This document shows, in pieces, positions 21,669 through 62,756 of a stretch of DNA of 64,000 nucleotides. A model generated the notes under the pieces. That model ran no database searches and was not told where the DNA came from. It saw only the letters and a program-made list of their open reading frames with translations. The first letter of the stretch is position 1, and each line of letters begins with the position of its first letter. The position numbers and the translations under genes were made by a program. Source of the DNA: Haloferax litoreum (GTDB lineage Archaea; Halobacteriota; Halobacteria; Halobacteriales; Haloferacaceae); assembly GCF_009674605.1 (NCBI RefSeq), contig NZ_WKJO01000001.1, forward strand, positions 1,178,001 through 1,242,000, read 5' to 3'.

Positions 21669-21776
21669 GGGCTGGTAGCTCAGTTAGGCAGAGCGTCTGG
21701 CTTTTAACGGGGCTACGCAGGTTGCGTGGTTTCGGAAGACACCAGACGGTCGGGGGTTCAAGTCCCTCCCAGCCCG
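21669..21776 (+). tRNA. tRNA-Lys(UUU) with a 34-nt intron
   Basis: The acceptor stem GGGCTGG (21669-21675) pairs with CCAGCCC (21769-21775), with discriminator G21776. Anticodon TTT is at 21703-21705. An intron interrupts the anticodon loop after position 37: exon 1 ends at A21706, the intron is 21707-21740, and exon 2 resumes at A21741. The archaeal splicing endonuclease motif is visible: CTTT (21701-21704) pairs with GAAG (21735-21738), flanked by 3-nt bulges TAA and ACA, with outer helix CTGG/CCAG. The mature anticodon loop becomes CTTTTAA. A TATA box lies at -29. Confidence 0.95.
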
Positions 21777-21816: not shown

Positions 21817-21883
21817 CTGGGAGGACTTGAATCAGGGAGCGAACGGAGTGAGCGACTGAGGTTCACGTCTCTCCCAGCCCGTT
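21817..21883 (+). repeat. tRNA-Lys-derived hairpin (inverted plus direct copy of the tRNA 3' end)
   Basis: CTGGGAGGACTTGAATC (21817-21833) is an inverted copy of the tRNA-Lys T-arm/acceptor. GTTCACGTCTCTCCCAG begins a direct copy (21861-21883) matching the tRNA at 21 of 23 bases, including the two bases after the tRNA end. The two arms can form about 16 bp (7, then a U bulge, 3, one mismatch, 6). The 26-nt loop contains GGGAGCGAACGGAGTGAGCG. The unit starts 40 nt after the tRNA and ends in GTTTT, a possible terminator. Confidence 0.75.
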
Positions 21884-59672: not shown

Positions 59673-59698
59673 TTCGTCGCAGAATGCGCCGACCGGGA
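59673..59698 (-). repeat. Direct copy of the tRNA-Gly 3' end and trailer
   Basis: TTCGTCGCAGAATGCGCCGA-type sequence matches 59837-59862 at 25 of 26 positions. It covers the last 14 bases of tRNA-Gly plus 12 bases of its 3' trailer. It is the second, more distant copy of the tRNA end. Confidence 0.7.
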
Positions 59699-59757
59699 CT
59701 CACGCGAGCGAAGCGAGTGTGAGTACGTCGGGTAGCGAACGTAGTGAGCGAACCGAC

Positions 59758-59808
59758 GGGAATTGAACCCCAATCGCTCCCTTGCGGTCGCTCCTTGATT
59801 CAATTCCC
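59758..59808 (-). repeat. tRNA-Gly-derived hairpin (inverted plus direct copy of the T-arm)
   Basis: On the minus strand GGGAATTGAATC (59797-59808) pairs with GGTTCAATTCCC (59758-59769) over 12 bp, with one G-U pair. Both arms derive from the tRNA-Gly T-arm. The enclosed 27-nt loop reads AAGGAGCGACCGCAAGGGAG then CGATTGG, similar to the tRNA-Lys loop. The unit starts 40 nt after the tRNA end. The inverted copy can be extended to 59821. Confidence 0.75.
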
Positions 59809-59848
59809 TCCGGAGCGCATTCGCTCCTCACATTCGTTCGTCACAGAA

Positions 59849-59919
59849 TGCGCCGACCGGGAATTGAACCCGGGCTTCGAGCTTGGGAAGCTCGTGTCCT
59901 ACCACTGGACCATCGGCGC
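59849..59919 (-). tRNA. tRNA-Gly(CCC)
   Basis: A 71-nt tRNA on the minus strand. The 7-bp acceptor is GCGCCGA/TCGGCGC with discriminator A. The anticodon stem CGAGC/GCTCG encloses the loop TTCCCAA, giving anticodon CCC. The T-loop is TTCAATT. No intron. The sequence GTTATC at 59945-59950 is a TATA candidate on the minus strand, 27-32 bp upstream of 59919. Confidence 0.93.
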
Positions 59920-60018
59920 ACGTCGCTTCGCTCGTGCCCCGAGCGTTATCTTACTTCGTTCGACAACACATCGGCGCTCATCTCATTCGCACTGGGCTCG
60001 ACCTTACTTCGTTCGGTC

Positions 60019-62523: not shown

Positions 62524-62595
62524 GCCTGGGTAGCTTAGCGGTAAAGCGCGTCCTTGGTAAGGACGAGAGCCCGGGTTCAAATCCCGGCCTAGGCT
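62524..62595 (+). tRNA. tRNA-Thr(GGU)
   Basis: A 72-nt tRNA. The acceptor is GCCTGGG/CCTAGGC (one G-U) with discriminator T. The anticodon stem CGTCC/GGACG encloses the loop TTGGTAA, anticodon GGT. No intron. The T-loop is TTCAAAT. Archaeal tRNA-Thr typically carries discriminator U. Confidence 0.95.
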
Positions 62596-62630
62596 TTCTG
62601 CGAGGAACATCGTGACGAGCAGAAGCCGTA

Positions 62631-62694
62631 GCCGGATTTGAGCAGCGAGCAAATCTCCGATTTGCGAGTGAGTTCAAATCCCGGCCGAGGCTTT
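62631..62694 (+). repeat. tRNA-Thr-derived hairpin (inverted plus direct copy of the tRNA 3' end)
   Basis: GCCGGATTTGAGC (62631-62643) pairs with GTTCAAATCCCGGC (62672-62685) over 13 bp with one bulged C. The direct copy runs to 62694 and matches the tRNA at 22 of 23 bases. The 28-nt loop contains its own hairpin, GCAAATC/GATTTGC (62649-62655, 62659-62665). It starts 35 nt after the tRNA and ends in CTTTTT, a possible terminator. Confidence 0.75.
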
Positions 62695-62756
62695 TTCTGA
62701 AACTCACCATCGCGAGCTGTCGATGTCACTTATTCAGACAGCGAACACGCCCCAAA

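What the first reader, a model, noticed from the sequence alone, without database searches (positions are those of the whole stretch)
62524..62695. tRNA-Thr repeats the same arrangement with a nested hairpin
A 13-bp stem of inverted and direct tRNA-Thr 3' sequence starts 35 nt after the tRNA, encloses a 28-nt loop with an inner 7-bp hairpin, and ends in T5. Spacing (35-40 nt) and loop size (26-28 nt) are nearly constant across the three tRNAs although the arms differ. That argues for an element defined by structure and generated from each tRNA.
Basis: partly seen in the sequence, partly recalled or inferred. Interest (0 to 1): 0.65.

Follow-up and report, generated by a model that had tools for sequence, protein, structure and literature searches.

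The report
tRNA-copied hairpins behind haloarchaeal tRNA genes
Behind about half of the tRNA genes in two salt-loving archaea, and in nearly all genomes of their order, sits a short DNA unit that copies the end of its own tRNA gene once backwards and once forwards, so it folds into a hairpin followed by a T-rich stop-like stretch; it changes in step with the tRNA, looks undescribed, and its function is unproven.

Summary
In this Haloferax genome 28 of 51 tRNAs, and in Halogeometricum limi 27 of 48, carry a downstream copy of their own T-loop-to-3' end. The full unit is X–loop1–rc(X)–loop2–X, where X is the tRNA 3' end plus T-rich trailer and the loops are GA-capped hairpin tips. A covariance model built from 19 units hits 234 of 242 Halobacteriales genomes but only 1 of about 126 others in the phylum; 114 of 115 strong hits lie just downstream of a tRNA, in sense. 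Where the same tRNA differs between species, the direct copy carries its own tRNA's base in 61 of 65 cells. Paired compensatory drift away from the tRNA is absent (0 of 491 cells), so the arms are templated from the tRNA and homogenised, not a stem held together by covariation. Exact empty sites exist within the genus. A T-rich tract follows the copy as it follows the tRNA. Best reading: a duplicated-with-inversion tRNA end that supplies a second hairpin-plus-T terminator; the termination function is inferred. It fails the tests for integrase remnants, MITEs and known RNA families. No earlier description was found in the open papers searched.

The parts
62524..62595 (+). tRNA-Thr(GGT); its T loop to 3' end is the template X
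   Evidence: ARAGORN and Rfam RF00005
62597..62623 (+). hairpin 1: trailer TTCTGC pairs with GCAGAA around loop1 GAACATCGTGA
   Evidence: sequence, fold
62624..62642 (+). inverted copy rc(X) of T loop / T stem 3' / acceptor 3'
62643..62671 (+). loop2 with inner 7-bp hairpin GCAAATC-TCC-GATTTGC and tandem GA steps
62672..62692 (+). direct copy X2 of the tRNA-Thr 3' end (20 of 21 nt)
62693..62696 (+). T tract after X2
   Evidence: statistics over 44 units
62627..62689 (+). match to covariance model R1 (63.4 bits, E = 1e-16); this unit's sequence is one of the 19 the model was built from
21669..21776 (+). tRNA-Lys(UUU) with intron
21817..21877 (+). same unit behind tRNA-Lys (R1 65.7 bits; in the training set); direct copy 21860-21881 then TTTT
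59848..59920 (-). tRNA-Gly(CCC)
59752..59813 (-). same unit behind tRNA-Gly (R1 63.9 bits; in the training set)

Best explanation
The unit is a tRNA-end-templated repeat, X-loop1-rc(X)-loop2-X, found across Halobacteriales. Shown: X is the 3' end of the adjacent tRNA gene plus its T-rich trailer; it is copied once in inverted and once in direct orientation; arrays of 1-4 units occur; units are present or exactly absent among close relatives; copies stay in step with their own tRNA. Inferred origin: local copying with inversion (template switching at GA-capped hairpins on the sense strand), followed by expansion, collapse and homogenisation through recombination between the identical X copies, with the functional tRNA as the constant donor. 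Inferred function: because X ends in the tRNA's own T-rich stop signal and rc(X) gives it a pairing partner, each unit makes a second hairpin-plus-T-tract terminator for transcripts that read through the first.
For: Direct copies behind 28/51 and 27/48 tRNAs. The own tRNA matches better than nearly all other tRNAs' ends, and upstream controls give only tandem tRNAs. 114 of 115 strong model hits lie 25-297 nt downstream of a tRNA in sense, including distant families. Restricted to Halobacteriales. Arms follow species differences of the same tRNA: direct 61/65, inverted 34 own vs 0 consensus. No compensatory drift. Exact empty site in the genus: unit in G076, tRNA joined directly to the homologous flank in G028, G102, G107, G117. 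Four and three tandem units in L140 and L083. T fraction 0.49 in the 8 nt after the tRNA, 0.44 after X2, 0.18 further down, p = 1e-12. The sense strand folds better than the antisense in both genomes (p = 0.019 and 2e-4) but upstream controls do not. Hairpins upstream of 503 transcript ends, one of them tested and terminating 59% of transcripts, are reported for H. volcanii (PMC7237163).
Against: No transcript or termination data were available here. Archaeal termination does not need a hairpin, and about half of the tRNAs manage without a unit. Some units (Ala-GGC type) carry the GA cap on the antisense strand and fold better as antisense. Equilibrium folding predicts that rc(X) invades the tRNA itself and that X2 rescues it only partly, which would be costly if read-through were common. 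The template-switch step was not observed. The Thr unit shared by Haloferax and Halogeometricum, with nearly the same loops, needs old age with homogenisation, selection, or transfer.
Confidence: 0.5

Rival explanations
1. Neutral by-product: the same template-switch/recombination process makes and removes the units, with no function; T tracts and hairpins are carried along because they are part of the copied piece.
For: No compensatory changes and no G-U excess; frequent gain and loss; about half of tRNAs lack it; the same GA cap tops an unrelated dispersed palindromic repeat in Halorubrum.
Against: Near-universal presence in Halobacteriales, always in sense, T tract retained after X2, loops conserved between genera for Thr.
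Confidence: 0.27
2. Attenuator: rc(X) can pair either with the tRNA's own 3' end (hairpin A) or with X2 (hairpin B plus T tract). A properly folded tRNA leaves rc(X) free to form the terminator; an unfolded or damaged tRNA captures rc(X), so transcription reads through or the bad transcript is trapped.
For: The layout X-rc(X)-X is mutually exclusive by construction. Predicted loss of tRNA pairing from 0.78 to 0.13 when rc(X) is present without X2, and 0.25 with it.
Against: Equilibrium predictions only; pairing of rc(X) is poor at the acceptor/T-stem junction; nothing regulated downstream was identified.
Confidence: 0.12
3. Remnants of integrase-driven mobile elements that use the T loop of tRNAs as attachment site.
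For: Direct repeats from T loop to 3' end and exact empty sites; real elements do integrate at these tRNAs; one orphan unit lies next to what reads as an integrase gene (unverified).
Against: The G076 unit is only 98 nt, too short for integrase or cargo. Real element copies at tRNA-Thr start at tRNA nt 15-39, not in the T loop. An inverted copy is not predicted. The loop motif occurs in 1 of 2.9 million viral contigs, without a tRNA. Elements integrate at the tRNA and push the unit aside.
Confidence: 0.08

Closest known systems
[quoted passage not shown]
   Same: Archaeal, palindromic, just downstream of about half of the tRNA genes, function unknown.
   Different: One fixed sequence at 10 bp in one species; not a copy of the tRNA, no direct copy, no array.
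Haloferax volcanii terminators: T stretch, and hairpins upstream of transcript ends (PMC7237163)
   Same: Hairpin next to a T-rich stop region in the same genus.
   Different: tRNA-derived arms are not mentioned in the passages read.
tRNA 3' fragments left by integrative elements (PMC9897764, PMC3119063)
   Same: Partial direct copy of the tRNA 3' end downstream of the gene.
   Different: Those lie kilobases away across an element and have no inverted copy; these are about 100-nt units, often in tandem.
Dispersed palindromic repeats with the same GA cap in Halorubrum (seen here)
   Same: Same loop motif GGGAGCGAACGNAGTGAGCGACYG at the hairpin tip.
   Different: Dispersed rather than tRNA-linked, with arms unrelated to tRNA.

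Membership tests
Hairpin-plus-T-tract transcription terminator | stable hairpin on the transcribed strand | tested here: met
   Thr z = -5.4; sense better than antisense in both genomes
Hairpin-plus-T-tract transcription terminator | T-rich tract directly after the hairpin | tested here: met
   30 of 44 units have 3 or more T in 6 nt; T fraction 0.44 vs 0.18
Hairpin-plus-T-tract transcription terminator | transcripts end there | not testable with these tools
   no RNA data for this species
Integrative-element attachment remnant | direct repeat of tRNA 3' end with exact empty site | tested here: met
Integrative-element attachment remnant | element or integrase between the repeats | tested here: not met
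   the unit is 98 nt in G076
Integrative-element attachment remnant | same site carried by element or viral genomes | tested here: not met
   1 of 2.9 million viral contigs with the loop motif, no tRNA there
MITE / transposon with terminal inverted repeats | terminal repeats constant between copies | tested here: not met
   arms differ by locus and follow the local tRNA
Curated RNA family (Rfam 15) | match above gathering score | tested here: not met
   only RNase P and three tRNAs in the window
Covariation-maintained RNA element | compensatory changes within orthologous copies | tested here: not met
   0 of 491 cells; A1 covariation across tRNAs reflects different templates

The most novel reading that the evidence does not exclude
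A pan-haloarchaeal attenuator in which an antisense copy of the tRNA end chooses between the tRNA itself and a decoy copy, so that termination (or trapping of the transcript) depends on whether the tRNA has folded.
Probability: 0.15. Interest if true: 0.85.

Novelty: new variant of a known kind. Interest (0 to 1): 0.58.

Why it matters
If the copying is ongoing, tRNA genes in a whole archaeal order carry a self-renewing record of template switching and gene conversion that can be dated against the tRNA. If the terminator reading is right, haloarchaea solve tRNA read-through by copying the tRNA's own stop signal. Either way, partial-tRNA hits and supposed attachment sites next to haloarchaeal tRNAs should not be read as element remnants by default.

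Tried and rejected
GA-capped hairpins as a genome-wide feature of this genome: only 1 with a perfect stem of 3 or more in 64 kb, at tRNA-Lys. G-U over A-C asymmetry as proof of RNA selection: 24 to 5 in the model-selected set but 11 to 12 in the unbiased set, so it was selection bias. Compensatory pairs in A1: expected from different tRNA templates, not independent evidence. Per-genome hit counts are upper bounds in Halorubrum, where the loop motif also tops a dispersed repeat. Of 122 loop-motif matches in named genomes only 23 were next to a tRNA, so the loop motif alone is not tRNA-specific. The Rfam tRNA set of 52 in G000 missed tRNA-Trp and lists two doubtful entries. 51 of these tRNAs were analysed, so fractions are approximate. 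Nine literature searches, including the loop sequence itself, found no description.

Full report
Where it is. The window is G000:C1:1178001-1242000 of a Haloferax genome. tRNA-Thr(GGT) is at 62524-62595.

The observation. After the tRNA comes a hairpin made of its trailer (62597-62623), then an inverted copy of the T loop, T stem 3' strand and acceptor 3' strand, a 28-nt loop with an inner 7-bp hairpin, a direct copy of the tRNA end (62672-62692) and T's. The fold is far better than shuffles on the sense strand (z = -5.4) and weaker on the antisense. Lys and Gly in the window repeat it.

How general. In G000, direct copies of the own tRNA end lie within 300 nt downstream of 28 of 51 tRNAs, and in G025 of 27 of 48 (a few are tandem tRNAs). 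Own ends score above nearly all other tRNAs' ends, and upstream controls show only tandem tRNAs. Nineteen units gave a consensus fold and model R1. R1 hits in 162 of 170 Haloferacaceae genomes, 234 of 242 Halobacteriales and only 1 weak case among about 126 other Halobacteriota. Of 115 strong hits read in context, 114 lie in sense 25-297 nt downstream of a tRNA, including loci from the other families of the order.

Anatomy. Reading many loci side by side shows X–loop1–rc(X)–loop2–X. In tRNA-Gln, for instance, the trailer TTTTGC, loop GAACGATAGTGA, then GCAAA-TAGTC...GGATTCGAATC, loop2, and the tRNA end again. Loop1 is GAAC-N3/4-GTGA, or the same opened by a further hairpin, which gives two main spacing classes. 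Loop2 alternates 2-bp steps with tandem GA mismatches (GA-GC-GA-AC-GNA-GT-GA-GC-GA). Units can be tandem (four in L140, three in L083).

Evolution. Direct copies are 97.7% identical to their own tRNA on average in a set chosen without the model. Where one isoacceptor differs between species, the direct arm has its own tRNA's base in 61 of 65 cells and the inverted arm in 34, never the other species' base in the inverted arm. Positions where both arms agree against the tRNA are 0 of 491 unbiased and 1 of about 1440 in the model-selected set. So the arms are templated from the tRNA and kept equal to it; pairing follows from that and is not independently maintained. In tRNA-Thr of the same genus the unit is present in G076 and exactly absent in G028, G102, G107 and G117, whose flanks match what follows the unit in G076 (the G076 assembly has an N nearby).

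Function. The T-rich tract after the tRNA is repeated after X2 (0.49, 0.44, background 0.18), the sense strand folds better, and hairpins are reported upstream of some H. volcanii transcript ends. A second terminator is therefore the likeliest effect, but it is inferred. Equilibrium folding also predicts competition between the tRNA and rc(X), the basis of the attenuator reading.

Not an element remnant. The G076 unit is 98 nt, true integrated copies at this tRNA start at nt 15-39, the loop motif is almost absent from viral contigs, and elements insert at the tRNA and displace units. At tRNA-Thr in G085 a copy of tRNA nt 39-72 lies 7.7 kb downstream, with a unit 66 nt behind it; at tRNA-Thr(CGT) in G000 a unit lies 18 kb downstream.

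Known or new. Nine literature searches, one of them for the loop sequence, found no description. The nearest is a fixed palindrome behind M. kandleri tRNAs. Only openly licensed papers were searched.

Noticed in passing
window 59685-59750 (-): Second kind of hairpin behind tRNA-Gly: a copy of T stem plus acceptor end in which the T loop is missing, with the GA cap on the antisense strand. Also behind Ala-GGC, Arg, Tyr.
   Followed up: partly
window 59921-59945 (-): Just upstream of tRNA-Gly an inverted copy of the tRNA 5' start and GAGCGAAGCGA, as if the same copying happened at the 5' side.
   Followed up: no
L249-L367 (Halorubrum and others): Dispersed palindromic repeat of about 110 nt with the same GA-capped tip; arms differ between copies yet look complementary.
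   Followed up: partly
G000:C1:112460-130550 (L106): A unit with a tRNA-Thr(CGT) end lies 18 kb behind that tRNA, so an 18-kb element probably sits between.
   Followed up: no
L166 3-855 (G101): The only strong unit without a tRNA beside it starts right next to an open frame that reads like a tyrosine integrase; not checked against a family library.
   Followed up: partly
L118 200-450 (G000:C1:377.9 kb): Run of several GA-capped hairpins with different stems away from any tRNA, one with the same inner part as the Thr unit.
   Followed up: no
direct copies of Lys, Gly-GCC, Ser-TGA, Arg-TCG, Met: Several direct copies share an extra or changed C in the T loop (TTCAC), which would spoil a T loop.
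   Followed up: no
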